64,000 bases of DNA from the NCBI GenBank assembly GCA_030647435.1, contig JAUSJX010000012.1, forward strand, positions 72,063 through 136,062, given 5' to 3'. The notes under the pieces are model-generated. The model had not been told where the DNA came from, made no database searches, and saw only the letters and a program-made list of their open reading frames with translations. The DNA is from Candidatus Rokuibacteriota bacterium. Lineage in GTDB: Bacteria > Methylomirabilota > Methylomirabilia > Rokubacteriales > CSP1-6. Positions 17,104 to 35,422 of the stretch are shown piece after piece. Position numbers and translations under genes: made by a program. Each line of letters opens with the position of its first letter. Position 1 is the first letter of the stretch.

Positions 17104-17307
17104 ATGTCCCCTAAGAGACTGAGCCGCGTGATCCAGACACTCCGAGAGGCGAAGGGCCTGACGCAGCGCGACCTGGCCACGAAGGCCAAGGTCACGGCGG
17201 GCTATGTCGCGCAGCTCGAGATGGGGGTGCGGAAGAACCCCTCCCTCGACGTCCTTCGCCGCCTCGCCAAGGCGCTCGGCGTGCCGGTGACGGAGTTACT
17301 GGGCTAA
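17104..17307 (+). CDS. XRE-family regulator
   Basis: 67 residues, a complete Cro/CI-type helix-turn-helix domain (REAKGLTQRDLATKAKVTAG, then YVAQLEMGVRKNPSLDVLRR). Element B carries a close homologue (27342-27545), and the two share the ends MSPKRL and VPVTELLG. A TTGACA box lies at 17076-17081, the same 21-22 base distance from the start codon as in B. It probably controls the element's operons. Its stop overlaps the start of the Toprim gene (TAATG). Confidence 0.85.
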   Translation: MSPKRLSRVIQTLREAKGLTQRDLATKAKVTAGYVAQLEMGVRKNPSLDVLRRLAKALGVPVTELLG

Positions 17308-18245
17308 TGGGCCGCGGCCGGGCGGAGAAGAGCCTCGATCTGGTGCTGCTGGCCCACGAGATCCTGGAGCAGATCCAGCCGGCCAGTGTCCGCGCCGTCT
17401 GCTACCAGCTCTTTGTGCGCGGGGCCATCCCGGGGATGGACAAGGCCAGCACGAATCGGGTGGGCGCGCTCCTGACACGGGCGCGCGAGGAAGGCGAGAT
17501 CCCGTGGGAGTGGATCGTGCAGGAGGGACGCGCGATCGAGTCCGTCGCAGCCTGGCAGGATCCCGCGGCCTTCGCGCGGTCGGTCCAAGCGGCCTACCGG
17601 CGGAACAAATGGGACGGCCAGCCCACGCGCATCATGGTGGTGAGCGAGAAGGGGACCGTCCGCGGCACCCTCGCCCCGGTCCTCGAGGAGTTCGAGGTGG
17701 AGTTCCTGCCCGTCGGCGGCTACGCCAGCGCCACCCGGGTCAAAGAACTCGCGGATGCGCGCACCGCTGGGGACAAGCCCCTGCTCCTGCTCTATCTCGG
17801 GGATCACGATCCCTCGGGCCGGGGAATGTCGGACCAAGACCTCCCGCGGCGGCTGCTCCGCTACCTGAGCACCGATCGCGCCGACAAGGACGCCTGGGAC
17901 CAGGACGCCGTGGACTTCTACGCGGCCGAGTGGGGGGTGGACGTCAGACGCATCGCGCTCACCATCGAGGACACCGAGGCGCTCGGGGAGGACTTGGGGT
18001 TCCCGGCCGAGGACAAGGCGAACGACCCCCGCTATCCGTGGTTCGCGGAGACCTTCGGGTCCTGGTGTTGGGAGTTGGATGCGCTGAATCCGAACATCCT
18101 CCGCGGGCGGGTGCGCGACGCCCTGCGGGCGGAGCTGGACCCCGTGCAGTGGGCGCGCTATGTGGCGGCGGAGCAGGTCGAGCGGGCGTCGATCACCCAG
18201 ACGCTCGACGCCTGGAAGTCTATTTCCGGGCTCGCACGAGAATAG
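17307..18245 (+). CDS. Topo VI-A/Spo11-like Toprim protein
   Basis: 312 residues. The N-terminal winged-helix-like part (SVRAVCYQLFVRGAIPG, IPWEWIVQEGR) and the Toprim core (VVSEKGT with Glu, LYLGDHDPSGRG with the DxD pair, then ELDALNPNILRGRV) match a family of small topoisomerase VI A-related proteins seen in actinobacterial phages and mobile elements. The catalytic Tyr of true topoisomerases is not evident. Fused in operon with the XRE regulator by TAATG. In element B that partner slot holds a zincin. The role is unknown, perhaps DNA end processing or replication control. Confidence 0.65.
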   Translation: MGRGRAEKSLDLVLLAHEILEQIQPASVRAVCYQLFVRGAIPGMDKASTNRVGALLTRAREEGEIPWEWIVQEGRAIESVAAWQDPAAFARSVQAAYRRNKWDGQPTRIMVVSEKGTVRGTLAPVLEEFEVEFLPVGGYASATRVKELADARTAGDKPLLLLYLGDHDPSGRGMSDQDLPRRLLRYLSTDRADKDAWDQDAVDFYAAEWGVDVRRIALTIEDTEALGEDLGFPAEDKANDPRYPWFAETFGSWCWELDALNPNILRGRVRDALRAELDPVQWARYVAAEQVERASITQTLDAWKSISGLARE

Positions 18246-18254
18246 AAGTAGAAA

Positions 18255-18285
18255 CGCCCCGCGACGTCTAGCGACGTCCGGGGCG
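18255..18285 (+). ncRNA. Conserved bulged hairpin, copy in element A
   Basis: CGCCCCG (18255-18261) pairs with CGGGGCG (18279-18285). After a single bulged C the inner GACGTC pairs with GACGTC around a TAGC loop. Element B has the same structure at 26797-26825 with a different inner helix (GGCGG/CCGCC), so the pairing is kept while the bases change. The flanks (AAGTAGAAA before, GGCCCATCACCC after) are also conserved. It could be a terminator, an attenuator or a cis-acting RNA element. Confidence 0.6.
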
Positions 18286-18321
18286 ACGGCCCATCACCCA
18301 CACCCGACGAAGGAGGAGCGA

Positions 18322-18978
18322 ATGAGCACCCCGATCTTAGCAGCCCCGAAGCGACTCAGCGACGAAAAGTTCATGGATGCGATCGACAAGCTCAAGCCCA
18401 ACGTGTTTCCCGCCGTGGTCGCCGGAAAGGTTGACACCGGGACGATCACGGCTACGTGCTTCAACCTCATCAACGCCGACGGGCAGCGCCTCGCGGCACT
18501 GACGACCAACGACAACGGGTGCCCCGGTTTGGTCTTCTTTCATCCCGGAAGCGACGGCGCCCGCCTGGAGGTGATGCTCGAGGCGGCCGGGCCGGTGGTG
18601 AAATTCAACGACGCGAAGGGCAGGCAACGCCTGCGGGTCCACATCGGGCCCGGCGATACGCCGGCCGTGTTCCTCACGGGGGCGACTGGCCTCCCGCGGA
18701 TAAGCCTGATGGTCGATCGCGACCACCCACGGGTGATCCTCTTCCCTCGCGGTGCCCGCCATCGGTCCGTGGTTGCCGGGGTGCCCTTTCCCAAGATCCC
18801 GGAGCCCCGAGCTTGGGCGAGAGCCATGCGCGCCGCCAGGAGCAACAAACGGGCGGCATTCGAGACGGCGGCCCTGGACGCGGGCTTCCTGACGCCCGAG
18901 CTGCTGAAACTCTGGAACTTCGCCCGGCGGCGGCTCCGGCACCGGCCAGTCTCGCGTGCCCGGAAGGTGGTGGCGTGA
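18322..18978 (+). CDS. Hypothetical protein
   Basis: 218 residues. The middle is rich in beta-like segments (PGLVFFHPGSDGARLEVMLE, RLRVHIGPGDTPAVFL, LPRISLMVDRD), suggesting a sandwich-like fold, followed by a basic helical tail. AGGAGGAG precedes the ATG. Not recognised, and without a counterpart in element B. Confidence 0.55.
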   Translation: MSTPILAAPKRLSDEKFMDAIDKLKPNVFPAVVAGKVDTGTITATCFNLINADGQRLAALTTNDNGCPGLVFFHPGSDGARLEVMLEAAGPVVKFNDAKGRQRLRVHIGPGDTPAVFLTGATGLPRISLMVDRDHPRVILFPRGARHRSVVAGVPFPKIPEPRAWARAMRAARSNKRAAFETAALDAGFLTPELLKLWNFARRRLRHRPVSRARKVVA

Positions 18979-19283
18979 TGGCGGCGCGGGCGAAGACCGA
19001 AGCCCCGCCGGACCCGGGGGACCTCTCCTGCCTCGCCCAGCGACTCACGGCGGTACTTGTGACGCTCCAGGAGGCCACCGACGTCGAGGGCGACCTGCTC
19101 GATCGGCTCAAGGCCCATCATGAGGACCTCCCGTACGCGCTGCTCTGCGAGCTCTTCCCCGTGGCCATCCGCATGAGCAGAGAACTTGAAACGGGCCTCG
19201 ACCTGCAAACGCAGCAGCCGCCGATCGCTCCAACGCCGGCCCTCAAGCCGCATGCGCGGACCGACAGGCGGAGGGCCGCGTGA
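18978..19283 (+). CDS. Hypothetical protein
   Basis: 101 residues, TGATG-coupled to the previous gene. A single helical domain (LAQRLTAVLVTLQEATDVEG, DLPYALLCELFPVAIRMSRE) with a Pro-rich tail. Unknown function. Confidence 0.5.
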   Translation: MAARAKTEAPPDPGDLSCLAQRLTAVLVTLQEATDVEGDLLDRLKAHHEDLPYALLCELFPVAIRMSRELETGLDLQTQQPPIAPTPALKPHARTDRRRAA

Positions 19284-19693
19284 TGGGGGCGCGCGACGTG
19301 GGCGCGGTGATCGCGATCCCAAGCCTCGCGGAGGTCGTTGCAGACGCGAGCCGGGCCAAGGGGCTGACGCGGCCTGCGTTGGGCGCGCTCCTCATCGAGC
19401 TCGCAGCGGTCCAGACACAGCTCAGCGCCGAAGTCGCGACTGCGTCAGATGCCCCAGCCGTCGCCCCGCCCGATCGTTCCTTGACCATCGAGCAAGCGGC
19501 CGACCGGGTGCACGTGGCGCCGGCCACGATGAAGAGATGGCTTCGTCGAGAACCCTTCAACGCGGCCGTCGTCGTGCGGTCTCGGACCATGGTGCGGGTC
19601 AGCGCCGCCATGCTTGAGCAGGTGATTCAGGGAGGGGCCGCGGTCCGCCAGCGCCGTCGGCAGATCATGGCGCGGGCAGGAAGCGGCGCGTGA
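19283..19693 (+). CDS. HTH-domain protein (excisionase-like)
   Basis: 136 residues. The C-terminal part LTIEQAADRVHVAPATMKRW followed by RSRTMVRVSAAMLEQVI is a MerR/excisionase-type winged helix. It could be the directionality factor for the serine recombinase three genes downstream or a transcription factor. Start by TGATG overlap; a GTG three bases earlier is possible. Confidence 0.6.
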   Translation: MGARDVGAVIAIPSLAEVVADASRAKGLTRPALGALLIELAAVQTQLSAEVATASDAPAVAPPDRSLTIEQAADRVHVAPATMKRWLRREPFNAAVVVRSRTMVRVSAAMLEQVIQGGAAVRQRRRQIMARAGSGA

Positions 19694-19884
19694 TGGAAAC
19701 GCTCCTGCTCGCCCTCTGGATTGTCTCCCTGCTCCTCTCGCTCGGATCGCGTCGGGGCGCGTCGGTGCTGGTCGTGCCTGTGGTGGTGGTGCTCGTGCCG
19801 ACCCCCGAGGCGGCCACGCCGGCACTCCGGGGGGAGGATTGGTTGCGGCGCCAGCTCGAGGGGCTGGGGAAGGAGAAAGGATGA
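19693..19884 (+). CDS. Small membrane protein ending in LRRQLEGL
   Basis: 63-64 residues: two hydrophobic segments (TLLLALWIVSLLLSLG and ASVLVVPVVVVLVP) and the C-terminus GEDWLRRQLEGLGKEKG. The LRRQLEGL tail, with matching DNA, recurs at the ends of three unrelated element B genes (23722, 24072, 24452). The next gene starts by ATGATG overlap with AAGGAG inside this gene's end. Confidence 0.55.
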   Translation: METLLLALWIVSLLLSLGSRRGASVLVVPVVVVLVPTPEAATPALRGEDWLRRQLEGLGKEKG

Positions 19885-20465
19885 TGCCAACGGCGAGACG
19901 GATGATCCCCTGCACGGAGACAATCTCCGCGATGATGGCGGCGCAGGTGATGGAGGTCATGAACGAGTACGGGTTGATCGACGTTGGCGACGACCCGCAG
20001 GCCAATGCGGAAGCGAACGCGAATGCCGTCATGCGCGTCTTCAAGGCGCAAGGGCTGATGACAGCGAATGGTGACGTCCGCGCAGGGGCCTGCATCTTGC
20101 TGCCGGGCGCCTCCGCGGGCGCCGGGTTCAAGCTGCTGTTTACCCTTCCCGCGATCGCGGAGGAGCATGACGGGGCCACTTTGCAACGGAAGCGGTCGCC
20201 GGTCACGTTCGGCCGGACGCCGCAAGGGGAGATCATTGTCCCGGCCCGCTGGCTTCTGGCAAAACTTGAGGACCTCGCCAGCAACCCGAGTGCCCCCCGC
20301 GATGTGCGATCCCTCGCGCTGGCTCTCTCTCGCGCGAAGCGAGACGATATCGTGCTCCCAGCGGAAGCCGAGACAGTCGCGGTCGCCGTCGACTACGCGG
20401 ACGAGCGGGTGATCTTTGAAGCGCTGCCCGCCGGGCTCGTGGTCTCCGTGGAGGAAGTCCCATGA
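19881..20465 (+). CDS. Hypothetical protein
   Basis: 194 residues. N-terminal helices (SAMMAAQVMEVMNEYGLIDV) and a central beta-rich region. Not recognised. It is ATGA-coupled to the serine recombinase, so it may assist or regulate recombination. Confidence 0.5.
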   Translation: MMPTARRMIPCTETISAMMAAQVMEVMNEYGLIDVGDDPQANAEANANAVMRVFKAQGLMTANGDVRAGACILLPGASAGAGFKLLFTLPAIAEEHDGATLQRKRSPVTFGRTPQGEIIVPARWLLAKLEDLASNPSAPRDVRSLALALSRAKRDDIVLPAEAETVAVAVDYADERVIFEALPAGLVVSVEEVP

Positions 20466-22112
20466 TCGCCGCCATTTACGCTCGCAAGTCCACGGACCAG
20501 AACCTGCCCGACGAGGAGAAGTCCGTCACGCGGCAGATTGAGCGCGCCACGGCCTACGCGCAGGCGAAGGGCTGGACCGTCGCCGCGGAGCACGTCCACG
20601 CCGACGACGGGATCTCCGGGGCGGAGTTCGTCAAGCGCCCGGGCTTCCTGCGCCTCATGAACGCGCTCAAGCCGCGCCCGCCCTTCCAGGTGCTCATCAT
20701 GTCCGAGGAGTCGCGCCTCGGACGCGAGCAGATCGAGACGGCCTACGCGCTCAAGCAGATCACCGACGCCGGCGTGCGTGTGTTCTTCTACCTCGAGGAC
20801 CGCGAGCGGACGCTTGGCTCGGCCATGGACAAGGTCATGCTCTCCCTGACCAACTTCGCCGCCGAAATGGAGCGGGAGAAGGCCAGCCAGCGGACCCATG
20901 ACAAGCTGACGGGAGTATTCGAGCGCGGCCAGGTCCCCGGCGGGATGGTCTTCGGCTACGACAACGTCGAGGTCCTCTCCCCTACCCCGGGCCGGGATGG
21001 CAAGCCCCGCCGCGCCCACGTGATCCGGCAGATCAACGCACCCCAGGCCGAGGTCCTTCGCCGGATCTTCCAGCTCTGCGCGGATGGGTGGGGCCTCGTC
21101 CGCATCGCCAAGGCGCTGACTGGCGAGGGGATCGCCAAGCCCAAAGGCAAGGGCCGCGGGTGGGCACCCTCGGCGATCCGCGAGATGCTCCACCGCGAGC
21201 TCTACCACGGCCGCGTCGTGTGGAACAAGATGCAGCGGGTGCACCGGGGCGGGACGCGGGGGAAGCGCGCGCGCCCGGAGTCCGAGTGGCTGGTGCTCGA
21301 CGCGCCCGCGCTTCGCATCGTGCCCGAGCCCCTGTGGCAGGCCGCGCACGCCGCCCTCGAGCAGAAGCAGGCCGCGTATCTCCGCATGGCGGGCGGCAAG
21401 CTCATCGGCCGGCCCGAGGGCTCCCGCGAGTCGCCCTACCTGCTCACCGGGCTCTCTATCTGCCATGAGTGCGGCGGAAGCATCTGCGCGACCACGCGGA
21501 CGCACGGCCGCCACGTGCGCACCTACTACGGCTGCTTCCACCATCGGAGCCGCGGCGACGGGGGCTGCCCGAACAATCTCACGATGCCGATGGACGAGGC
21601 CAACCGGCTCCTGCTCGACGCGCTCAGCCGCGACGTGCTGACGCCCGCGATGGTCACGGGGACGCTTGAGGACACGCTCGCCGCCTGGCAGGCTGAGGGC
21701 GTGCCCGCGCTCGCGCGCCGCGAGGGCATGGAGGCTCGACTCCGGCAGCTCAACGCCGAGCTTGTCCACCTGACCAACGCCCTGGCCGGCGGGGCGCCCC
21801 CAGCCTCCGTCCATGAGGCCATCCGGGCCCGGGAGCGCGAACGGGCGGACGTGCAGGCGCAGCTCGAGCACCTGGACGGGCTGACGCGATTCACGGCAGG
21901 GGTAGATCCTCTCGCGCTCCAGGAGGACCTCGGCGCGCGGCTGGCGGACTGGCAGGGGCTCCTCGAGCGGCAGCCGATCCAGGCCCGGCAGATCCTCCGG
22001 AAGCTCCTGGTCGGCCGCCTGATCTTCGAGCCCTTTGAGGATGCGGACGGACGAGGCTACAAACTCAGAGGGCAGGCCACCTACGGGCGCCTGCTCTCCG
22101 GTGTTTATTCGG

Positions 22113-22129
<17 letters not shown>
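20462..22129 (+). CDS. Large serine recombinase (integrase of element A)
   Basis: 555 residues. The resolvase domain covers residues 1-150 with catalytic Ser10 in IYARKSTDQ and an Arg-rich active site (EESRLGREQIE). The Recombinase domain follows (about 160-270, QVPGGMVFGYDN). A zinc ribbon (CHECGG...C...C) covers about 335-375, and a coiled coil lies near 430-490. These are the parts of phage large serine integrases, which join attP and attB with a 2-bp crossover. The gene starts by ATGA overlap. Its last codons (VVPPG) and stop lie in the tRNA-Arg 3' end, so the coding region forms part of the right attachment site. Confidence 0.93.
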
Positions 22130-23298
<1,169 letters not shown>

Positions 23299-23299
<1 letters not shown>

Positions 23300-23349
23300 C
23301 AGGGCCTCCTTTCGGTCGTGGACTTGCGAGCGTAGAGGGCGGCGATCAT
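23299..23349 (-). pseudogene. Serine-recombinase N-terminal relic / integrase leader ORF
   Basis: A 16-codon frame MIAALYARKSTTERRP whose first 11 codons match the start of the serine recombinase of element A (20462-20494) at 31 of 33 bases, including the catalytic Ser codon. The stop overlaps the integrase ATG (TGATG). It reads as the scar of an exchange in which a tyrosine integrase replaced a serine recombinase, now serving as a coupled leader. Confidence 0.75.
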
Positions 23350-23371
23350 CGCGGCGCCCCTTTCCAAGGGA

Positions 23372-23725
23372 TCACGGCTTGAGAAACTCATCGATCACCG
23401 CCTGGAGGATCGGCTGAACGTGAACGCCTATGTCGACCGTGTACGCTGCCATCTTGCTCATGATCGAACGCCCTTCCGGGGATGACTGCCACCGCGTTTG
23501 GGCCTCAATCTCCGCAACGGTGTACTGTCGCACGAGGACCTCGATGATGCCCCGCTCGAGGTCCTCCCCGCGGCCCCGGAGGGTCAGGGCCAATTGAGAC
23601 TTCTTCGTGTCTGGGAGACCGGGCAGCTGCGCCACAATCCCCCGGATCATGTCCTCCAGCATGGGCACGATTGCCATGTAGTGCCGGGCTGCGATCCGTC
23701 GACGCTCCGTGGAGTCCTGATTCAC
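23372..23725 (-). CDS. DUF2059-like protein
   Basis: 117 residues. The segment AEIEAQTRWQSSPEGRSIMS with the following helix (YTVDIGVHVQPILQAVIDEF) resembles DUF2059, a helical domain found mostly in exported proteins; no signal peptide is seen here. GTG start overlapping the preceding stop. Its role in the element is unknown. Confidence 0.5.
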   Translation of the reverse strand: MNQDSTERRRIAARHYMAIVPMLEDMIRGIVAQLPGLPDTKKSQLALTLRGRGEDLERGIIEVLVRQYTVAEIEAQTRWQSSPEGRSIMSKMAAYTVDIGVHVQPILQAVIDEFLKP

Positions 23726-24075
23726 TGGCCCAGCCCCCCGCTCTGCCGGCGGAGCCAGGCTGGCCAATCGCCATCCTGAATCCGGGTCCGCGAGTGGCCC
23801 GAGATCACGTTGCACGTCAGCACCACAGGCTGCGGGCCCGCCTTGCGCAGCGCCCGGCCGACGCGCTCGGCCCGCAAGGAGAGCCTCGTCCGCTCGCGCA
23901 GCACGAGCAGCGACACGATCAGGCGATGCTTCTGCCCGGCGGCGGGGACCGTGAACAGCACGCCCTCGTCGTCCGCGAGGCGCGTGGACGTGATCGTGGC
24001 GGCCGCGGGGAACTCGTGGCGGAGATACTCGCCGACCTCCGAGACTCCGGCCGCAATGTCCGTGTGCGCGATCAT
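23722..24075 (-). CDS. Hypothetical protein ending in LRRQSGGL
   Basis: 117 residues with an alpha/beta-like body (DEGVLFTVPAAGQKHRLIVS) and the tail WPAWLRRQSGGLGQ, a variant of the LRRQLEGL end found in three other element genes. ATGA-coupled to the gene before it, GTGA-coupled to the gene after. Confidence 0.5.
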   Translation of the reverse strand: MIAHTDIAAGVSEVGEYLRHEFPAAATITSTRLADDEGVLFTVPAAGQKHRLIVSLLVLRERTRLSLRAERVGRALRKAGPQPVVLTCNVISGHSRTRIQDGDWPAWLRRQSGGLGQ

Positions 24076-24455
24076 CGCTTCCCCCCGTCCAGCCCCTCGA
24101 GCTGCCGGCCGATCCTCGGCCCCCGCACCGGGCGGCCGGCGATCGCCGACGCTGGGGGGAGCGCCGGCGGCGTGTCGCGTCGCCAGCGGTCAATCATCAG
24201 ACGCGGCCCGGGCTGCAGCGTCCGCGCCGTCTCGAGGAGGCGGCCAATCTCGACGGTGAGGGCCCAGCTCTCGTCGACGAGCGCGTGAGCCTCGGCGCGG
24301 AAGGCTTCACGACGGCGCGGGCTATGAGGATCGACGCGCGGCCCTTGCAAGCGCTGGACGCCGATCACCAACCCGGAGATCCGGCCGGGCAAGTCCTGCA
24401 GCCGCTCCGCGACGGCCGCGATCCCGTCCACCAGGTCCTCCGCCGTGGCGGTCAC
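24072..24455 (-). CDS. Hypothetical helical protein ending in GRQLEGL
   Basis: 127 residues, GTG start overlapping the preceding 23-codon frame. Helical body (DGIAAVAERLQDLPGRISGL, ALVDESWALTVEIGRLLETA) and tail GRQLEGLDGGKR. Function unknown. Confidence 0.5.
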   Translation of the reverse strand: MTATAEDLVDGIAAVAERLQDLPGRISGLVIGVQRLQGPRVDPHSPRRREAFRAEAHALVDESWALTVEIGRLLETARTLQPGPRLMIDRWRRDTPPALPPASAIAGRPVRGPRIGRQLEGLDGGKR

Positions 24456-24523
24456 CGCGGGGCCTGATCGTCCGGCGTCGGGGTGAGCCCCTCGAGCTGC
24501 CGGCGGAGCCAGGCGGTCTTCAT
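24452..24523 (-). CDS. 23-residue peptide MKTAWLRRQLEGL...
   Basis: A very short frame (MKTAWLRRQLEGLTPTPDDQ plus three residues) whose ATG overlaps the stop of the 689-residue protein gene and whose stop overlaps the next GTG. It consists almost wholly of the recurrent LRRQLEGL module. It may be a real micropeptide or a residue of a longer gene that keeps ribosomes moving. Confidence 0.4.
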   Translation of the reverse strand: MKTAWLRRQLEGLTPTPDDQAPR

Positions 24524-26589
24524 GCTCTCGCCTTTCGCCGAGCCGTCTTCCGCGCTCGCGCTCGCGCCTCTGCCTGGGCGAGCAGTCGGTTGGCCACAGC
24601 GACGACGCGGACGCTCGTCCCGTGTCCCCCGAGGACGCGGCAGACAGCTGAGACTCCGACTCCGGCGGCTTGGGCGATGCGTGTCTGGCTGATCCCGGCG
24701 GCTTTCAGCCTCGGAGGCAGCCAGACGGCCACACGACTCGACTCCTCGATCGCCGTGGCTCGGGTGCGCTGCGTGTGCTCGCTCTCCGCCCGTTGCCGGG
24801 CCTGCTCTAGTTCTCGACGCTCCTTTGTGATTTTCGCGCGATCCGCGGCGGCCGAGCGTGTCAACTCGTCGAGCTCGGCTCGTTCGCGGGCCAGCTCGTC
24901 GCGCGGCGAGGGAGCCGGCGCGGCCCCCGCGAGAGAAACCGCTTCGGCTGGCGGCGCAGGCGCGCTTCCCTTCGCGCGAGCCTCCGCGGCCCCAATCATG
25001 GCCCGCGCCGTTTCTAGAACCCGCTCGTTCTTCTGGCGTCCAGCGAGGACGTGACACACCGAGGCGCGACTGAAGCCGGCGAGCTGGGCGATTTGCGCCT
25101 GAGTAATGCCCAGCTCTCTGAGGCGGCTGGCAAGGGCTGGGTGCGCGGCGACCGCTCGGAGAGCCCGGCTCATGGGATCCGGGCGCGCCGGCGGGGGCCA
25201 GCCGCCGGGCAGCAGGGCGAGCGCCGCCCGTCGTCGCCGCTCCAGCTCGCCGACCTCTTCGAGCAGCTCCGCGCGGTCTCGCGCGACCCCAGCGATCACG
25301 TCCTCGCGCAGCGCCGCCCGCTCGGCCTCAAGTGTCGCGTGGCTCTCGTCGACAGCCTGCTTGGTTGCCGCACGCTCGGCCTCCAGGGCCCCCTGCGCGC
25401 TGGCTATCGTCTGCCGCGCGAGGCGCAGCAGACGCTCCTGTTCGGCCAGACGTGCCTCTCGGCGCATGGCGTGCTGATGCCAGAGACGCTGCTCCCCCAC
25501 CGACGGTCCCGGGACGGCCGGGCGCGCGATGATCCCCCGTGCGATCAGGCGCCACTCGCGGTAGGTCGGAATGGTGACACCCGCGAGGGCCTCAACGTGG
25601 GGGACGAACGCGAGGATCTCGGCATCGAGGCGCTCGAGCGCCTTGCGCTTGGCGTAGAGTGTCCCTGCCGCGTAGGGTCGACCCTTGTGTATGGGACCCG
25701 CGGAGACGCCTCGGGCCAGGTCCTCGAGGAGTACGTCTCGCCACTGGATCCCAGGCTGAATTTTCTTCCACAGCTGGTCCGCGTCCCACCGCTGCCCTTT
25801 GGCGAATCGGACCCATAGCGCTCGGCGGGCGGCGAGACTGTCGCCCCCGAGCGCCCGGGTCTCAGCGTGGGCCATGTAGGCGCTGAATCGCTCCTGCCGG
25901 CGGTCCGACGTCACGCCCCCAAGTGCCCGGCGCGCCGCCTCCCGTCGCGCTGCTGGCGGCTTCACCAAGTCTTGCCAGTCGTCTAGCGCCTCGCCCACCA
26001 AATCAACGAGCGCCTGCGGCGCCAGGCCGTGACGGAGGACGTCGAGCAGGACCTCTCGAAGCGCTGGCGCGGCCTCCTCTTCTTCTTCCTCCTCCTCGGT
26101 AGTGGCCGGGGGCAGGAGCCGCCGGAGCCGATTCGCCTCCTCGCCCCACTCGACCGGAATGCCATACCGCTCCCGGAGCGTCTCGGCGACCATCGGATCA
26201 TCCGTGAGCGCGTAGAGGTGGCGCGGGTAGGCCGCAGACGCGCGCCAGCCGCGCTCGTGCTCGACGATCTTCCCCCACAGCGCGACCTGGCCGACCACTA
26301 CGACGCCGGGGAGCCTGGGGGTTCCACTCGGAGGCGCGAAGGCCCAGGCGACCTCCTGTAACAGCATCGGATGGCAGACCGCCCAGATCCCGCACTTGCA
26401 GCCATCGGCGGGGACCTCGTGCGATTCCTCTGGACAGACGGCCTCGTGCGCCTGGCGCGGCTTCCAGGCGAGGCCACGCTTGTAGATCGGCCGGAGGAGC
26501 CCCTCGCCCGGCAGCACGTACCAGCACCGCCAGCCGACCAGGGGTTCGTCGCTGACCTCGAGCGGGAGTCTCGCGGCTTCGCCAGCCAT
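24520..26589 (-). CDS. Large protein with phage N-terminal domain, coiled coils and two HTH domains
   Basis: 689 residues. The N-terminal 150 residues (WRCWYVLPGEGLL, CKCGIWAVCHP, VVVVGQVALWGKIVEHERGW, YPRHLYALTDDP) resemble a domain common in phage hypothetical proteins. Then come an acidic stretch (eight Glu near 170), a long helical part and a coiled coil (380-470). Two LacI/XRE-like HTH motifs follow, LGITQAQIAQLAGFSRASVC and AGISQTRIAQAAGVGVSAVC, joined by a second coiled coil. It may bridge two DNA sites. TGATG overlap at the start, Arg/Lys-rich end. Confidence 0.6.
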   Translation of the reverse strand: MAGEAARLPLEVSDEPLVGWRCWYVLPGEGLLRPIYKRGLAWKPRQAHEAVCPEESHEVPADGCKCGIWAVCHPMLLQEVAWAFAPPSGTPRLPGVVVVGQVALWGKIVEHERGWRASAAYPRHLYALTDDPMVAETLRERYGIPVEWGEEANRLRRLLPPATTEEEEEEEEAAPALREVLLDVLRHGLAPQALVDLVGEALDDWQDLVKPPAARREAARRALGGVTSDRRQERFSAYMAHAETRALGGDSLAARRALWVRFAKGQRWDADQLWKKIQPGIQWRDVLLEDLARGVSAGPIHKGRPYAAGTLYAKRKALERLDAEILAFVPHVEALAGVTIPTYREWRLIARGIIARPAVPGPSVGEQRLWHQHAMRREARLAEQERLLRLARQTIASAQGALEAERAATKQAVDESHATLEAERAALREDVIAGVARDRAELLEEVGELERRRRAALALLPGGWPPPARPDPMSRALRAVAAHPALASRLRELGITQAQIAQLAGFSRASVCHVLAGRQKNERVLETARAMIGAAEARAKGSAPAPPAEAVSLAGAAPAPSPRDELARERAELDELTRSAAADRAKITKERRELEQARQRAESEHTQRTRATAIEESSRVAVWLPPRLKAAGISQTRIAQAAGVGVSAVCRVLGGHGTSVRVVAVANRLLAQAEARARARKTARRKARA

Positions 26590-26762
26590 CAGCCGACGTG
26601 CTCGGGCTCAGGCTCCAGGACGGGGCGCGGCGCCGGGTCTGGGATCTCTTCCTGGGGCAGCGGCGCCGGCACGGGCAGCTCGCGCGGGACGATGTACCAC
26701 TTCCGCTGCGGTTCGCCGACTTCCATCGCTCGGATGGCCGGTGATACACTGACCTCGCTCAT
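26589..26762 (-). CDS. Small Pro-rich protein
   Basis: 57 residues; the Trp/Tyr patch EPQRKWYIVPRELPVPAPL precedes a Pro/Glu-rich end. GGAGGGG before the ATG decides the start. The leader upstream is conserved with that of 18322 in element A and contains the bulged hairpin. Function unknown. Confidence 0.5.
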   Translation of the reverse strand: MSEVSVSPAIRAMEVGEPQRKWYIVPRELPVPAPLPQEEIPDPAPRPVLEPEPEHVG

Positions 26763-26796
26763 CGTCCCCTCCGTCACGTTCGGGTGATGGGCCATG

Positions 26797-26825
26797 GCCC
26801 CGGGCGGTTCGCGCCGCCGCGGGGC
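26797..26825 (-). ncRNA. Conserved bulged hairpin, copy in element B
   Basis: On the minus strand GCCCCG pairs with CGGGGC. After a bulged C the inner GGCGG pairs with CCGCC around a CGCGAA loop. The preceding AAGTAGAAACGCCCCGCG and following GGCCCATCACCC match the element A copy (18255-18285) while the inner helix has changed with pairing kept. Between the zincin gene and the next gene. Confidence 0.6.
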
Positions 26826-26829
26826 GTTT

Positions 26830-27345
26830 CTACTTCAGTCGTAGTGCCTCAGCCTCGAATGTCTCTTCCTCGAGCCAGAAGCCCCAAGCTCGAGCAATAG
26901 CGTCGGCCACCTTCTCTCCGCCCGAGATCTCCTCTGGAGTCTTTTCGCGGTAGTGGTCGTTCGTGCCGCTGACTCGCGTGTAGGGCTTGCCGCCGAGGGC
27001 CATGCTCCCACACGCCATCCCGGACGCCACGTGTCCCAGCTCGTGAGCGATCACCCACATGACGGAGAGATCAGAGAAGCCATCGAGCCACGGTTGGAAG
27101 AGCGTCACGGTCCACACCTGCTCGTTGTGCCCCTCGATCGGCGGATCGTCGGCGGCCGTCTCTAATTCTTCCTCGCGGAGAGAGCTCGCAATACCGCGCG
27201 CGGGTTTCTCGGGCGAAAGTTCAACGCTCAGCGTTCGGTAGTAGTCCCACCCTTCGGGAAGTCGGGTAAGCACATGCCTGAGCACTTCGCGGTAGCGGCC
27301 CGGAGGCAGCGCTGATGCGATCTCCTCGAAAGCGTGCTCGTTCAC
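26830..27345 (-). CDS. Zincin-type metallopeptidase next to XRE regulator
   Basis: 171 residues with VMWVIAHELGHVASGMACGS, the HExxH zinc site, and a later Glu (GGEKVADAIARAWGF) as possible third ligand. Coupled by ATGA to the upstream XRE gene. The pairing recalls ImmA/IrrE-type proteases that inactivate a neighbouring phage-like repressor on induction (ImmR/ImmA of ICEBs1), though overall similarity to ImmA is not obvious. If analogous, it would destroy the XRE repressor. Confidence 0.65.
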   Translation of the reverse strand: MNEHAFEEIASALPPGRYREVLRHVLTRLPEGWDYYRTLSVELSPEKPARGIASSLREEELETAADDPPIEGHNEQVWTVTLFQPWLDGFSDLSVMWVIAHELGHVASGMACGSMALGGKPYTRVSGTNDHYREKTPEEISGGEKVADAIARAWGFWLEEETFEAEALRLK

Positions 27346-27545
27346 CCCAGCAGCTCCGTCACCGGCACGCCGAGGGCCTTGGCGAGGCGACGGAGCACCG
27401 CGAGGGAGGGGTTCTTCCTGACGCCCGTTTCGAGCATCGTGATATACGCGTCCGTCACGCCGATGCGCTTTGCCAGCGCCTTCTGGCTGAGCCCCTTTTC
27501 CATCCGCAGCTTTTTGATCACCTGACGTAGCCTCTTGGGAGACAC
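27342..27545 (-). CDS. XRE-family regulator
   Basis: 67 residues; HTH at MEKGLSQKALAKRIGVTDAY, then ITMLETGVRKNPSLAVLRRL. Very similar to the regulator at 17104-17307 of element A. GTG start with AGGAG ten bases upstream, lying inside a perfect palindrome that is its likely own operator. It is followed by the zincin gene. Confidence 0.85.
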   Translation of the reverse strand: MSPKRLRQVIKKLRMEKGLSQKALAKRIGVTDAYITMLETGVRKNPSLAVLRRLAKALGVPVTELLG

Positions 27546-27572
27546 GATAGACTAACTCCTAGTTAGTGTCAA
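27544..27572 (-). promoter_or_regulatory. Palindromic operator overlapping promoter and RBS of XRE gene
   Basis: ACTAACT (27551-27557) and AGTTAGT (27561-27567) form a perfect 7-bp inverted repeat with a 3-base centre. It abuts a TTGACA -35 box (27567-27572) and is followed by TATCGT (27544-27549), which overlaps the GTG start. The AGGAG ribosome binding site lies within the palindrome, so a bound dimer would block both steps. Confidence 0.6.
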
Positions 27573-27858
27573 GTGGGTTCCGCAACCGTCCGATGATCCC
27601 CGCCAGCTCCTCGGCCACCCGCTCGAGGGCGGCGCGGAGCCCCTGATCCCCGGCCCGCCGCGCCTCGGCCTGCTTCTGGCGGGACCTGGCCACGCGGCAC
27701 TTGCCGCTGCAGACGGTCTGCCGCCCCTGGAGCTCACGCGTCCCGCAGATCGGGCATGGCCGGGAGCCTACCACGATGCCCGAGAGGGGCGTACGTACGC
27801 CTGGGGGGCAGGGCTGGGACGCGGAATCAGCCGAGGACATGGGGAGGGGGTTACCCAC
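27559..27858 (-). CDS. Small Cys4 zinc-finger-like protein
   Basis: 99 residues. CPICGTRELQGRQTVCSGKC is a typical CxxC...CxxxC unit followed by basic RVARSRQKQAEARR and a leucine-rich helix (LERVAEELAGIIGRL). Probably binds nucleic acid. GTG at 27858 overlaps the previous gene; an ATG at 27840 is an alternative. Confidence 0.55.
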   Translation of the reverse strand: MGNPLPMSSADSASQPCPPGVRTPLSGIVVGSRPCPICGTRELQGRQTVCSGKCRVARSRQKQAEARRAGDQGLRAALERVAEELAGIIGRLRNPLDTN

Positions 27859-28045
27859 CCTCAGGGGGAGGCGGCGCGGCGAGCCGGGGCGCCCGATTCA
27901 CGCGGGCCTGTCCATGGGCGCCGGCACTGCGGCCCGCACGCTCCTGGCGCCGTAAAGCCGGGCATTCCCGGGCGAGCTTGGAGCCCACGGGATGCCGGCC
28001 GCCCACGAGGCAGGTGCCGTGGATCACCGATCGGAACGGCGTCAT
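27851..28045 (-). CDS. MTPFRSV-type conserved element protein
   Basis: 64 residues, homologous at its N-terminus (MTPFRSVIHGTCLVGGRHPV) to 16208-16570 in element A but shorter, lacking the basic C-terminal helix. ATGA-coupled to the preceding gene. Function unknown. Confidence 0.55.
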   Translation of the reverse strand: MTPFRSVIHGTCLVGGRHPVGSKLARECPALRRQERAGRSAGAHGQARVNRAPRLAAPPPPEGG

Positions 28046-28227
28046 GTCGAGGGCCGGGCGCCGGGCGGGCCGATGCTGACACCCCACCGCCGCGCCTCGT
28101 CGGTCTGCCGGCGCACGGGTCGGAGTGCCGCCAGCTCCGCGACCCGCTCGCGGTCGGCCCGAGCGATCCCGCGACGGACGACGGCCTGAAAGCGCCGATG
28201 CACGTCGGGCCGGATGGGCGTGCTCAT
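28042..28227 (-). CDS. Small basic protein
   Basis: 61 residues, helical and Arg-rich (RRFQAVVRRGIARADRERVA). Overlaps the next gene by 4 bases. Unknown function. Confidence 0.45.
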   Translation of the reverse strand: MSTPIRPDVHRRFQAVVRRGIARADRERVAELAALRPVRRQTDEARRWGVSIGPPGARPST

Positions 28228-28231
28228 GCCT

Positions 28232-28507
28232 TCAGGACGGCCGCTCGGGCGCCGCGGACTCGCCGCGCGCCTCGAGGATCACCCGATCGGCCTCGGCGCG
28301 GAGGCGCCCGGCCACCTCCCGGGACTCGCCCGTAGCTCGATCGATGAGCTCCGAGAGCGTCGTCAGGCTCCTGGCCACCTCGCCGCCCAGGCGCAGGTTG
28401 AGGTCGAACTGCGCCGCGGCCGCGCGGTGCAGCCTCCAGAGCCGCGTGGCGCTCCAGGCGACGAAAAGGACGAGGAGCATCATCAGGATCATCACCATCG
28501 TCGTCAT
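28232..28507 (-). CDS. Small membrane-anchored coiled-coil protein
   Basis: 91 residues: an N-terminal transmembrane segment (VMILMMLLVLFVAWSATRLW) and a helical cytoplasmic part (SLTTLSELIDRATGESREVA). It directly follows the tape-measure gene, where small holin- or spanin-like proteins can occur, but one TM with a long coiled coil is not diagnostic. Confidence 0.55.
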   Translation of the reverse strand: MTTMVMILMMLLVLFVAWSATRLWRLHRAAAAQFDLNLRLGGEVARSLTTLSELIDRATGESREVAGRLRAEADRVILEARGESAAPERPS

Positions 28508-28521
28508 GGTCGTCTCCTCTG

Positions 28522-31500
28522 TCAGGCCGTCAGATGCCCGATCGTCACGGTGGCGCCGAAGTCCGACTCCACGCGGAGAATCTGGAGGTCCCGGTCGCGG
28601 TCGACCTTGACGAGCTTCTCCAGGATCCGCTGCGCCTGGTCGTCGGTCAGATTGTCGAGCGTGTTCCCGATGGCGAAGAGATCCTGACCGGCCGCCTCCC
28701 CCAGGCGAGACAGCGGCAGGATCGTCTGCCGCGTGATCCGCCCCGCCGCCCCGCGGAGCCCCGTCGAGAACTGCTCGTCGTAGCCGAAGAGAATGCCCTG
28801 CTCGCTCGCCGCCAGCTCCTGGACTTTGCTGGTGACGGCTTGTTCGATGGCCCGGTTGGCGTCGTCCTTGAAGTGCTGCGCGATCCCCTGCTGGATCGAG
28901 GAGAAGAACGTGCCGGCGAGCGTGCCCTGGACGAACTGCTCCAGCGTGGCGATCGCGTACACGGCGGCGCTCGTGCCGATCAACAGCTGCCGCCCGTCTA
29001 TCACCACCCCGGTGACGATGGCGACGCTGCTGCTGCCCCCGCTATTGCCCGACCCATTGGCGGCCAGCAGGGCGTAGAGCTGCTCCGTCGACGCGGTCGC
29101 GCGGATTTGCCCGATGATCGCCGAGGCCGCATCCGAGACGCGGGTGATCTCGGCCTGCTTGCGCTGCTTGGACTCCTGCTCCGCCTTGCCGAGCATGCCC
29201 GCACCCCCGCCGATCGCCGCGCCGGCGACCGCGCCGATCAAGGTCCCCCAACCGGGAGAAATGTAGCTTCCCAAAACCGCGCCGGAGAGCGCGCCGCTGA
29301 GGGCCCCGCCGTAGGGGTCGGCCGTCTGATAGGCGGAATACGCGCTGTAGGCGAGCGCGGCCACGGCCACCACGCCCCCAGCGATCGTGGCCGCGCTCGC
29401 GCCCGCACCGGCCAACGTCCCGGAGGCCCCAGCCACGCCCGCCGCGCTGGCCCCGGCCTCGCCCACCCCCGCCCCGAGCGCCGCCGCCAGGTCTCCGGCG
29501 TTCGTCACGAGGGCTGGACCGGCCGCCGTCGCCACGATCACGGCCTGCCCGGACTGCACGGCCGCCACCGCGTTGAAGCCGCCGAGTTGGAACGCCGTGG
29601 CGATGTTCCCAGCCGAGACCGACGGGCCGAAGAAGCCCTGCCCGAACTGGCGGGCCGCCCCCAGGAGATCCGTCATGTAGCCGGTCGCCGACGAGCCGGT
29701 CACGGCACTGACACCCGTGCTCACCCGTTGCCCGATGAACCCGCTGGCGCCGACTCCCGCGCCGAGCGTCCCGCCGGCTGTCGCGCTCGCGGCCCCGCTC
29801 GCCGTGATCGCCACGCCGCCCCCGCCGCCGCCGAGCGCGAAGGGGCTCGCCACCAGCGGGATCGCCGAGAAGACGCGCCCCGGGCCACCCAGCCCGAGCC
29901 CCTGGCCGAGGGCCGCGAAGACCCGCGAGGTCAGGCCTGTGCTGAGCTGCTCGATGAAGCTCGTCAGCAGGCGCTTGCCCAGCTGCTTGCCGATGTCCCC
30001 GATCTTGTCGATCTCCCCGGTAAGCCCGGCCACGACGATGTCCGAGAAGCCGCGGTTGATGTCGTGGAAGGCCCCGACCACGGACAACCGCATCCGGTCG
30101 CCGGCCGACGCCACCTGCTCCGCGATGTCCGTGAAGCCCGCCAGCATCCCGGCGGTCGGATCGGTGCGCTCACTCTCGCGCTGCGAGACGTTGCGCGACT
30201 GCACGCGCGCCGTCAGCTCGACCAATTCCCGCTCCGAATCGGACCGGGCCCGCGAGAGATCTAGCTGTCGCTGGGCCTCGATCGTGACCAGCTGGGCCTG
30301 CGCGCGCTCGTCGGCGGTGAGTCCGACCTGCTGGTGCAGGATCTCCGCCCGCCGCACGGCCACGTCGAGCTGGCTCGCTTGGGCGCGCGTCCGCTGCCCA
30401 TCCAGCTCCTTCTCCAGTGCCGTCTGCTGCTCCGCGGTCTCGCGCTCGAAGTCCGCGAACGTCTGGGCGCTGCGGAGCCTCGCGTCGGCCGCCTCTTGCG
30501 CCTGGTCCGCCTTCTGCGTCGCCTGCCGCTGCAGCTCGGCTGTGAGGGCGAACTCCTCCTCGAATGTCTTCTGCGCGGCCTCCTGTTCGGCGGCCAGCGG
30601 GGTAAAGCGCTGGTCGATCAGCTTCTCGGACAGCGCCTTGCCCTGTTCCTCACGGGCCAGCTTCTGCCGTTGCAGCGAGATGGCCAGCTCTCCGCTCCGC
30701 GCCTCCTGTTCCAGCCGGAACGTTTCCTCAAGAGGCCCGGTCGGCAGGCCTTCCTTGATCGCGGCCGCGCGTCGAATCCCCTGCTCCTGGCGGAGGGCCT
30801 GCATGGCCAGGTCCCGCTCCCGGCGGTCGGCGGCTTCGAGCGGCCCTTGGAGCGCGCGGAAGCCGGCGAGGTCCTCCTCGTTCGCACGCCGCTGCTGCTG
30901 GAAGAGGAGCGCACGCTGCTGGGTGCCCGCGATCCCAGCCATGAGCCCGGTCTGCCTCGCGCCTTCCTGGACGCCGAGGAGACCGCCGAGCATCGTCATC
31001 GCCTGCGCGCGCTGGGCCTCCGGTGTCGGAGCGCCGAAGAACGTCTCCTGGGCCGCCTGCGGGAGCGCCTGGAGCCGCGACAGGAAGCTCTGGACGGCGC
31101 CGGTCCAGGTCCCCGCCTGATTCCCGATCCGGTTCCCGATGTCCGACATCCGGTCCATCTCGTTGTTGACGCGCGCGAGTTCCCCGCGGAGGGTGCCCAC
31201 GTCGAGCGAATTCAACGCCCGTCCAAATCGCAATTGCTCGTCCGACACGCGGTTGAGCGCGATGCCGTAGGAGGCGAGGATCGAGACCAGCCCGGTCGCG
31301 GCGCCGCCGACCGACTGTGTCATCGTGCCCGCGAGGCCGCGGAACGATCCCGTCAGGCCGGGGATGACGGCGCCGAGCTTTTCGAAGGACTCGCGGACCG
31401 CGTTGATGCCCGTGGCGAAGTGGACGTTACCGCCCGCGGTCTTGTCGAACTCCCCGCGGACTTTGTTCAGGACCTCGGTGGCTTGATCACGCGCACTGAT

Positions 31501-31527
31501 AGTTATGATTAAATCTTGAGCAGCCAT
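28522..31527 (-). CDS. Tape-measure-like protein
   Basis: 1001 residues, homologous in plan to 12759-15629. N-terminal strand MAAQDLIITISARDQATEVL, a long helical region (100-480, with repeated Glu/Gln/Arg heptads), Gly/Ala-rich hydrophobic segments (560-800) including GTLIGAVAGAAIGGGAGMLG, and a shared C-terminal domain ending near KVDRDRDLQILRVE. The start is three bases after the preceding stop. As in A, no tail-tube, distal-tail or fibre genes are adjacent. Confidence 0.75.
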   Translation of the reverse strand: MAAQDLIITISARDQATEVLNKVRGEFDKTAGGNVHFATGINAVRESFEKLGAVIPGLTGSFRGLAGTMTQSVGGAATGLVSILASYGIALNRVSDEQLRFGRALNSLDVGTLRGELARVNNEMDRMSDIGNRIGNQAGTWTGAVQSFLSRLQALPQAAQETFFGAPTPEAQRAQAMTMLGGLLGVQEGARQTGLMAGIAGTQQRALLFQQQRRANEEDLAGFRALQGPLEAADRRERDLAMQALRQEQGIRRAAAIKEGLPTGPLEETFRLEQEARSGELAISLQRQKLAREEQGKALSEKLIDQRFTPLAAEQEAAQKTFEEEFALTAELQRQATQKADQAQEAADARLRSAQTFADFERETAEQQTALEKELDGQRTRAQASQLDVAVRRAEILHQQVGLTADERAQAQLVTIEAQRQLDLSRARSDSERELVELTARVQSRNVSQRESERTDPTAGMLAGFTDIAEQVASAGDRMRLSVVGAFHDINRGFSDIVVAGLTGEIDKIGDIGKQLGKRLLTSFIEQLSTGLTSRVFAALGQGLGLGGPGRVFSAIPLVASPFALGGGGGGVAITASGAASATAGGTLGAGVGASGFIGQRVSTGVSAVTGSSATGYMTDLLGAARQFGQGFFGPSVSAGNIATAFQLGGFNAVAAVQSGQAVIVATAAGPALVTNAGDLAAALGAGVGEAGASAAGVAGASGTLAGAGASAATIAGGVVAVAALAYSAYSAYQTADPYGGALSGALSGAVLGSYISPGWGTLIGAVAGAAIGGGAGMLGKAEQESKQRKQAEITRVSDAASAIIGQIRATASTEQLYALLAANGSGNSGGSSSVAIVTGVVIDGRQLLIGTSAAVYAIATLEQFVQGTLAGTFFSSIQQGIAQHFKDDANRAIEQAVTSKVQELAASEQGILFGYDEQFSTGLRGAAGRITRQTILPLSRLGEAAGQDLFAIGNTLDNLTDDQAQRILEKLVKVDRDRDLQILRVESDFGATVTIGHLTA

Positions 31528-31528
31528 G

Positions 31529-31768
31529 TCAGCTCGCCTCCTTGGACATCGCCTGCACAATGAGCGGCGCCGCCTCGCACGGGTGCACGTCGACGGCGCG
31601 CGGGCCGCGGACGGTGTCGAGCGGGGTAAACTCGACCCGCTGCCCGATCGTCAGCTCGAGCACGTCGAGGAGGTCGTCGCGGTGGGCGAAGTATTGCCGG
31701 CGATCGGCGCCGGTGACTTTTCCGAAGCCGCGCCGCGAGTCGAAGTGGTGGCAGATCCCCGTCATCAC
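31529..31768 (-). CDS. Cold-shock-domain-like protein
   Basis: 79 residues. DSRRGFGKVTGADRRQYFAH matches the RNP1 (RGFG) and RNP2 (YFAH) parts of a CspA-type OB fold, and the following GQRVEFTPLD and PRAVDVHP are its later strands. Such proteins bind single-stranded RNA or DNA. It lies just before the tape-measure gene. ATGATG gives two possible starts. Confidence 0.7.
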   Translation of the reverse strand: MMTGICHHFDSRRGFGKVTGADRRQYFAHRDDLLDVLELTIGQRVEFTPLDTVRGPRAVDVHPCEAAPLIVQAMSKEAS

Positions 31769-31798
31769 ACCACCGCGCCCGTATGTCGGAATCGCATG

Positions 31799-32212
31799 TT
31801 AGAGAACCACCGCCCCGCGCTGATCGAGCCACGCTCGGCAGCCCTGGCAGCGGTACCGCCCGGCCGACTCACGAAACCCGGCGCCGAGGCAGCGCAGGCA
31901 GGTCACGGTGCGCGGCAGCGGGGGCCGCGCGACGAGGGGCTGCTGCGGCGCACGACGACCGCGCGCAGCGGACGCCGCGAGCTGCTGACGAAATTCTTCC
32001 GGGGAACCCGGAACGGCCCGGCGCGCGGCCAGCGCGAGCTGCTGGCGGAACGCTGCGGGGCTGTCGGAAAGGGCGCGAGGCGCCGGCGGCAGGGCCGATG
32101 CGGGCCGACGGTCGGCGCTGATGCGGTAGACCTGGGCGGCGGTGCGCGGGCCGCACAGACCCAGCGGGCGGCGCGGGTCGTTCATCTCGGCGACGTATTC
32201 ATCGAACGTCAT
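31799..32212 (-). CDS. Hypothetical protein with C-terminal zinc ribbon
   Basis: 137 residues. A Pro/Arg-rich body with two similar units (SPAAFRQQLALAARR, SPEEFRQQLAASAAR) precedes CLRCLGAGF...YRCQGCRAWLD, a CxxC-CxxC zinc ribbon. ATGA-coupled to the gene before. Unknown function. Confidence 0.55.
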   Translation of the reverse strand: MTFDEYVAEMNDPRRPLGLCGPRTAAQVYRISADRRPASALPPAPRALSDSPAAFRQQLALAARRAVPGSPEEFRQQLAASAARGRRAPQQPLVARPPLPRTVTCLRCLGAGFRESAGRYRCQGCRAWLDQRGAVVL

Positions 32213-32895
32213 CGCCGAGCCTCCTGTTCCTTCTGCAGCCGCCAGCCGAGCTCACGTGCCTCGCCGGGCGTCAGATCGGGGCGCTGCGGCGTCGTCACGG
32301 CGTCCGTCGCGGTCGGGACGCTCGCGTCGATCGCCGCCAGCTGGCCGCGCAGCTCCGCATCGTCCAGCGCCTCAAGCTCAAGGGCGTCGAGGCGGAGGCA
32401 GGCCGCGCCGACGGCCTGCATGACGCGCGCATTTTCCGCGGCGTTGCTGCTCCAGAATTCGGGATATGTCCCGGTGGCGCGATCGAGCAACCCCGGGTGC
32501 GGCCCGGTCGCTCGGGTCGCCGCGCGCGCGGCCTCTCCGCGAACGAGCAACCGCGACCGGCACTCCCTGATCCGGAGATCCGCGGTCGCGCGCAGCTGGC
32601 GCACCAGCCCGCCGTCCTGCGCCTCGAAGGCGAGGCTGGCGCTCATCACCCGGCGCGCCGCCTCGAGCCGGGCGGCGTGCGCCAGGAGCAACTCGGCCTC
32701 GAGGGCCCGCTCACGCGCCTCCGCGGCCGTCAGCGCGTCGGCGACGAGGGGCCGCTGGCGCTCGACGTCGGCACGGAGCCGGACCCGTTGCGCCATCCAG
32801 TCGCGCCGCTGGGCCAAATCTTCCGCCTGCTGCTCGGATTCGAGCTTCCGCCCGAGCGGTGACCGCGCGAAGCGCTCCACGATCTTGTCGCTCAT
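32209..32895 (-). CDS. Hypothetical coiled-coil protein
   Basis: 228 residues, strongly helical and Arg/Glu/Ala-rich (LESEQQAEDLAQRRDWMAQR, EARERALEAELLLAHAARLE). Scaffold- or tail-associated proteins can look like this, but there is no specific match. ATGA-coupled on both sides. Confidence 0.5.
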   Translation of the reverse strand: MSDKIVERFARSPLGRKLESEQQAEDLAQRRDWMAQRVRLRADVERQRPLVADALTAAEARERALEAELLLAHAARLEAARRVMSASLAFEAQDGGLVRQLRATADLRIRECRSRLLVRGEAARAATRATGPHPGLLDRATGTYPEFWSSNAAENARVMQAVGAACLRLDALELEALDDAELRGQLAAIDASVPTATDAVTTPQRPDLTPGEARELGWRLQKEQEARR

Positions 32896-33431: not shown

Positions 33432-33658
33432 CGCCTAGAGTCCTCCGGGGTGATGGCCATCGTGATCGGTTGAGCTCGCCTGAGTTCGCCGGCCAATTCG
33501 TCGACCGCAGCCAGGAGCCCGCGCAGGGCGTGCGACACGTGCGACGGAGCCAGCGGACGCAAGATCTTCAAGGCCACCACCATGTCGCCGACGACGGCGA
33601 GGGCCTGCAGGCCCGTCAAGCGCGCCTGCGCACAGCGCACCGTGGGATCGTCAGTCAT
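33428..33658 (-). CDS. Hypothetical small helical protein
   Basis: 76 residues, one helical domain (LQALAVVGDMVVALKILRPL, HALRGLLAAVDELAGEL). Starts by ATGA overlap. Unknown. Confidence 0.5.
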   Translation of the reverse strand: MTDDPTVRCAQARLTGLQALAVVGDMVVALKILRPLAPSHVSHALRGLLAAVDELAGELRRAQPITMAITPEDSRR

Positions 33659-35101: not shown

Positions 35102-35163
35102 TGACTGGGGCCCCGAGTAGAGAGGCGCGAGGCCCGTGAGGCCTCCCCTCGCGCGCGCGTATA

Positions 35164-35399: not shown

Positions 35400-35422
35400 C
35401 TTGGCCGGCGCGCGACGCGGTG

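What the first reader, a model, noticed from the sequence alone, without database searches (positions are those of the whole stretch)
18246..26830. Conserved bulged hairpin with covarying inner helix at the same position in both elements
AAGTAGAAACGCCCCG-C, an inner helix and CGGGGC, then GGCCCATCACCC and a ribosome binding site occur at 18247-18321 in A and 26830-26762 in B. The inner helix is GACGTC/GACGTC in A and GGCGG/CCGCC in B, keeping the pairing and the single bulged C. Conserved single-stranded flanks argue for more than a terminator. A candidate new cis-acting RNA.
Basis: seen in the sequence. Interest (0 to 1): 0.75.

Follow-up and report, generated by a model that had tools for sequence, protein, structure and literature searches.

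The report
Portable antisense RNA over gene starts
The conserved hairpin is real, but it most likely belongs to the opposite DNA strand, as the terminator of a small (~75-nt) antisense RNA gene that covers the translation start of the first gene of the prophage integrase operon; the same uncatalogued RNA is also found in many genomes of a second, distant group (probably Streptomyces).

Summary
Observation confirmed, interpretation re-read. The bulged hairpin and flanks are present in both prophages and in a third copy in the same genome. Covariance models found about 16 good members in Methylomirabilota-like prophages and hits in 120 of 293 genomes of an order that looks like Streptomyces. Both helices covary. 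The strand-specific signals all point to the strand opposite the downstream gene: a sigma70-type extended -10 (TGnTAnnnT) inside codons 5-7 of that gene, with a partial -35 at 17 bp; a predicted +1 opposite codon 2; a first stem-loop complementary to the ribosome-binding site and start codon; then the reported hairpin followed by a U-rich tail. G.U pairs are strongly biased to that strand (22 v 2 and 105 v 17). Best explanation: a ~75-nt cis-antisense RNA gene that represses translation of the operon's first gene; in the prophages that operon leads to an integrase in all 10 intact cases examined. The plan resembles P22 sar and IS10 RNA-OUT, but the family is not in Rfam, and it sits at starts of unrelated genes in two distant groups, like a portable start-plus-antisense cassette. 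No transcript data exist here: transcription and repression are inferred. Novelty: new variant of a known kind.

The parts
18334..18342 (-). Predicted extended -10 (TGC-TAAGAT) of the antisense RNA in element A, inside codons 5-7 of the downstream gene
   Evidence: TGnTAnnnT or nGnTAnnnT at the same distance from the start codon in 16 of 16 core members; -35 TT (11/16 at each base) at 17 bp; lies outside the search models
18246..18327 (-). Predicted antisense small RNA of element A (about 75-80 nt): +1 near 18327, SL1, SL2, U-rich end
   Evidence: promoter motif, two stem-loops and U-rich tail on this strand; no transcript data
18289..18327 (-). SL1 of A: GCUCAU...AUGGGC stem-loop, complementary to start codon and SD of the downstream gene
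   Evidence: -15.7 kcal/mol on this strand, -4.5 on the other; G.U bias
18256..18284 (-). SL2 of A: the reported bulged hairpin, read as terminator hairpin of the antisense RNA
   Evidence: covariation; U-rich tail on this strand only
18322..18978 (+). Target gene in A: 218-aa protein, first gene of the operon ending in a serine integrase (20462-22129)
   Evidence: ORF and Pfam/PHROG matches
26742..26750 (+). Predicted extended -10 (TGA-TACACT) of the antisense RNA in element B
26757..26838 (+). Predicted antisense small RNA of element B
26757..26792 (+). SL1 of B
   Evidence: -14.3 kcal/mol on this strand, -10.0 on the other
26797..26825 (+). SL2 of B: the reported bulged hairpin
26589..26762 (-). 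Target gene in B: 57-aa protein, first gene of the operon ending in a tyrosine integrase (22151-23299)
17104..17307 (+). XRE (HTH_3) regulator upstream of the element in A
   Evidence: HTH_3 E=6.8e-17
27342..27545 (-). XRE (HTH_3) regulator upstream of the element in B
   Evidence: HTH_3 E=6.2e-20

Best explanation
The hairpin is the 3' (terminator) stem-loop of a cis-encoded antisense RNA gene of about 75 nt. It is transcribed opposite to the downstream gene from a sigma70-type extended -10 promoter placed in that gene's first codons; the RNA starts opposite codon 2, carries the complement of start codon and Shine-Dalgarno in a first stem-loop (SL1), and ends in the bulged GC-rich hairpin (SL2) plus a U-rich tract. 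Pairing with the sense leader would block ribosome binding and so hold down the first gene of the operon. In these prophages that operon leads to the integrase, so the RNA would limit integrase-module expression until sense transcription outruns it. Supported here by sequence: anatomy, promoter-like motif, terminator features, two covarying stems, strand bias. Inferred: that it is transcribed, that it represses translation, and its role in integration and lysogeny.
For: Antisense [TC]GnTAnnnT in 16/16 core members at a fixed distance from the start codon, the other positions free; TT 11/16 at each base at 17 bp; +1 G 13/16. This region lies outside models R1/R2, which end at codon 2. Tail after SL2: 5.5 T per 12 nt on the antisense side, 1.5 on the sense side, 1.85 expected. 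SL1 mean energy -15.4 against -7.4 kcal/mol, Wilcoxon p=3.5e-4; mean z -2.4 against -0.8. G.U pairs in the SL1 stem: 22 antisense, 2 sense. Second group: antisense -10 (sense AnnnTA) 72/83 against 34/174 control windows; G.U 105 against 17; tail T 5.2/12; SL2 15 antisense G.U against 1; perfect SL1 stem 76/87 against 0.33 in shuffles, 24 distinct stems. Downstream integrase in 10 of 10 intact operons examined.
Against: No RNA-seq or northern data: transcription is unproven. The -35 is poor and the element is built into a coding region. A sense leader would carry the complementary stems, so a cis role is not excluded. Four further matches with the hairpin or tail lack the -10 (G019, G094b, G028, G031). 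Cells in all these counts are phylogenetically related, and the structural alignments were fitted to models. The first 8 columns of the model include part of the tail (GTAGAAAC), so its conservation is partly selected for in the Methylomirabilota set.
Confidence: 0.75

Rival explanations
1. A sense-strand 5' leader element: hairpin 1 plus an SD-sequestering hairpin 2 control translation of the downstream gene in cis, with or without a protein or other ligand.
For: Both stems could also form in the sense RNA; in the second group a sense TAnnnT lies about 20 nt upstream of the hairpin in 43/87 against 5/87 in a control window, so the hairpin can sit at the 5' end of the mRNA there.
Against: G.U pairs fall on the antisense strand, as A.C mismatches on the sense strand; sense SL1 is weak in the Methylomirabilota set; it does not explain the promoter-like motif in the codons or the U-rich tail.
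Confidence: 0.13
2. A small RNA gene on the antisense strand as described, but acting mainly in trans on other mRNAs or on co-resident elements; the overlap with the gene start is incidental.
For: Several copies per genome: three in G000, up to seven in single genomes of the second group; copies A and C1 share the first 42 nt of the predicted RNA.
Against: The position over SD and start codon is kept while target genes differ, and SL1 arms change together with SD and start region.
Confidence: 0.08
3. An ordinary terminator of the upstream gene, or a mosaic linker kept by recombination, without regulatory RNA function.
For: It lies between variable genes; in B and C1 the stop codon of the upstream gene lies in its flank.
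Against: No U tract on the sense side (1.5 T/12); compensatory changes in both stems; conservation continues into the downstream coding region as a -10.
Confidence: 0.04

Closest known systems
Phage P22 sar antisense RNA (68/69 nt; PMC12197685)
   Same: Small phage antisense RNA that pairs with an mRNA and interferes with initiation of translation; similar length.
   Different: Target is the antirepressor gene ant; sequence homology not examined; sar is one locus, this family sits at starts of unrelated genes. Its two stem-loops are known to me only from memory.
IS10/Tn10 RNA-OUT (69 nt, first 35 nt complementary to the transposase translation initiation region; PMC5006887)
   Same: Antisense RNA over the start of a recombinase gene; 5' part complementary to the initiation region.
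   Different: Transposase of an insertion sequence; here a two-stem RNA with bulged terminator hairpin in front of an operon whose last gene is an integrase.
Streptomyces scr4677 (70 nt, opposite strand, 5' end 14 nt upstream of SCO4676; found in about 60% of genomes surveyed; PMC3896431)
   Same: Expressed antisense RNA of the same size at a gene start; needs sequence inside the coding region for expression; widespread.
Lambda OOP RNA (77 nt; PMC12197685)
   Same: Small phage antisense RNA affecting the lysis-lysogeny decision.
   Different: Acts on cII through RNase III.

Membership tests
Cis-encoded antisense RNA over a translation initiation region (sar / RNA-OUT type) | Promoter on the strand opposite the target, close to or inside its coding start | tested here: met
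   TGnTAnnnT with partial -35 at 17 bp in 16/16 core members; 72/83 in the second group. A sequence motif, not a measured promoter.
Cis-encoded antisense RNA over a translation initiation region (sar / RNA-OUT type) | 5' part complementary to SD and start codon of the target | tested here: met
   Predicted +1 opposite codon 2, so SD and start codon lie inside the RNA in the core members
Cis-encoded antisense RNA over a translation initiation region (sar / RNA-OUT type) | Ends at an intrinsic terminator | tested here: met
   SL2 followed by a U-rich tail only on the antisense side
Cis-encoded antisense RNA over a translation initiation region (sar / RNA-OUT type) | Transcript exists and represses the target | not testable with these tools
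   no RNA data available
Sense-strand intrinsic terminator | GC-rich hairpin followed by a U tract on the sense strand | tested here: not met
   1.5 T in 12 nt after the hairpin, below background
Any Rfam 15 family | Match at gathering score or at E<=1 | tested here: not met
   only tRNAs in the window; none in member loci
scr4677 family of Streptomyces | Sequence similarity and position upstream of SCO4676 orthologues | not testable with these tools

The most novel reading that the evidence does not exclude
A portable expression cassette: one family of antisense RNA gene together with the SD and start codon it controls has been recombined in front of unrelated genes in prophages of Methylomirabilota and in many loci of a Streptomyces-like order, and copies with similar SL1 loops cross-regulate each other within a genome, with the bulged hairpin as a binding site for a shared protein.
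Probability: 0.2. Interest if true: 0.8.

Novelty: new variant of a known kind. Interest (0 to 1): 0.62.

Why it matters
Antisense RNAs are usually known as single cases tied to one gene. Here a two-stem antisense RNA that covaries over a wide set keeps its promoter, terminator and position at gene starts while the target gene changes, across two distant bacterial groups. In the prophages it would put integrase operons under antisense control, and its presence in a probably cultivable group makes a direct test easy.

Tried and rejected
(1) Rfam at gathering score and at E<=1: only tRNAs. (2) Pattern scans of viral contigs: the only 19 hits, from one loose pattern, scored as chance with the model. 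(3) Pattern scan of named genomes: none. (4) blastn of two second-group members against plasmids and phages: none. (5) A short pattern CGGGGCN{1,6}GGCCCATCACC in the family: besides the known members only matches that look like chance in coding DNA. (6) Loci around relatives of the B integrase in named genomes: no member among the 13 searched, so the RNA does not simply travel with that integrase family. (7) RNAalifold on an unfitted MAFFT alignment: a weak consensus on the antisense strand, almost none on the sense strand; MAFFT misaligns the SL2 arms, so I counted pairs on model-fitted alignments and by direct parsing instead. (8) An MS2-like coat operator: considered and dropped, since SD and start codon lie outside the reported hairpin. 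(9) A sense -10 upstream of the hairpin in the Methylomirabilota set: none conserved, by eye.

Full report
Setting. The window lies in a 5.8-Mb metagenome-type genome (176 contigs). The window holds two back-to-back prophage-like elements with the same gene order: primase-type and other phage genes, a long 973/1012-aa protein (tape-measure-like by size and glycine-zipper matches), an XRE regulator, one variable gene, the hairpin, more small genes and an integrase at the end. Element B runs from 22151 to 39932 by its 46-bp flanking repeat at a tRNA gene.

The observation. The hairpin and flanks are as described. A third copy sits in contig C1 of the same genome with B's hairpin and A's downstream half. 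A covariance model from these three (R1) searched 57 genomes of the family; nine good members gave a second model (R2) and, after phylum-wide search (95 genomes), 16 core members in two families. On nine members 97.9% of cells pair, 5 of 11 pairs change on both sides and none on one side only. Inner stems include GACGTC/GACGTC, GGCGG/CCGCC, GCGG/CCGC, GAGCG/CGCTC, GTGTG/CACAC and GTCGG/CCGAC; the outermost pair changes G-C to C-G; the single bulged C is kept in most.

Turning the strand. The sequence stays conserved past the start codon although the proteins differ. Codons 5-7 read A..-NTA-(G/C)CA, in genomes where third-position A is rare. On the opposite strand this is TGnTAnnnT, an extended -10, in the same place in 16/16 core members (T G. 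T A... T at 13, 16, 16, 16 and 16 of 16), with TT (11/16 at each base) at 17 bp for the -35 and a G (13/16) at the expected +1, which is the third base of codon 2. Models R1 and R2 end at codon 2, so this region was not used to find the members. From that +1 the RNA runs through the complements of start codon and SD, folds them into a stem-loop closed by the conserved GGCCCAtcACCC complement, then forms the reported hairpin and ends in GUUUCUAC or another U-rich tract. T content in the 12 nt after the hairpin is 5.5 on this side, 1.5 on the other, 1.85 expected. SL1 averages -15.4 kcal/mol on this strand and -7.4 on the sense strand (Wilcoxon p = 3.5e-4). In the closing stem, G.U pairs occur 22 times on the antisense strand and 2 times on the sense strand: A.C mismatches on one strand are wobble pairs on the other, so selection appears to act on the antisense RNA.

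A second group. A wider sample (388 genomes) found one unrelated genome, G338, and its order (293 genomes, many of 7-9 Mb, some in one contig; I take it to be Streptomyces, unnamed) gave matches in 120. These were found with a model that had never seen them. Of 91 loci 87 were parsed. They show the same bulged C (70 of 87 as parsed; by eye some of the rest look mis-parsed), a short covarying stem after GGCC (76/87 perfect stems of 4 bp or more, 24 distinct, 0.33 in shuffles), antisense -10 in 72/83 at a fixed distance against 34/174 control windows, G.U 105 antisense against 17 sense, tail T 5.2/12, and 15 antisense G.U against 1 in the inner SL2 pairs. SL2 covariation there is clear in cells (24, none of 500 shuffles as high) but the number of pairs changed on both sides is not above shuffles (3; 146/500). 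Neighbours in the 31 loci with longer flanks are mostly a GntR- or XRE-like gene on the opposite strand and small ORFs downstream (called by my own ORF script, regulators read by eye from sequence, not by a profile search). About half (43/87) also have a sense TAnnnT 20 nt upstream of the hairpin (5/87 control): two promoters facing each other.

Mechanism and target. In the prophages the first gene of the operon varies and the last is an integrase: tyrosine integrases in eight loci tested by Pfam, plus B's, and a serine integrase in A. In the other loci the operon is cut by a contig end or looks degraded. An antisense RNA over the start would hold this operon low, as sar does for ant (PMC12197685) and RNA-OUT for transposase (PMC5006887); this step is inference. 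In Streptomyces, scr4677 is an expressed 70-nt antisense RNA at a gene start with needed sequence inside the coding region (PMC3896431); whether it belongs here could not be tested.

Limits. No transcript data. Related sequences are counted as if separate. E-values from the short calibration are rough. The sense leader may also matter, above all in the second group. Literature search was limited to open papers; eight queries on antisense RNAs of phages, of insertion sequences and of Streptomyces, and on Rokubacteria prophages, showed no description of this family.

Noticed in passing
window 23311-23349 (-) and 20462-20502 (+): Directly upstream of B's tyrosine integrase is a short stretch (MIAALYARKST...) matching the first codons of A's serine integrase: it looks like the remnant of a serine integrase gene replaced by a tyrosine integrase.
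   Followed up: partly
window 22151-22196 and 39887-39932: 46-bp repeat, 96% identical, that overlaps the tRNA gene at 22116-22189 (-): likely attachment sites that bound element B.
   Followed up: partly
window 26830-27345: 171-aa gene between XRE and hairpin in B carries an HELGH motif (weak Peptidase_M48 match), possibly an ImmA-like partner of the XRE regulator.
   Followed up: no
window 17307-18245: 312-aa gene in the same slot of A matches a PHROG annotated as DNA topoisomerase (phrog_6247, E=8.6e-46).
   Followed up: no
window 38921-39871: 316-aa protein near the end of element B matches the proteasome-subunit family (PF00227, E=7e-10), unusual in a prophage.
   Followed up: no
L061 1501-1573 (G028): Leader with the conserved tail GTGGCCCATCACCC and RBS but a different hairpin and no antisense -10, before a short ORF with a resolvase-like start: degenerate or a different branch.
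   Followed up: no
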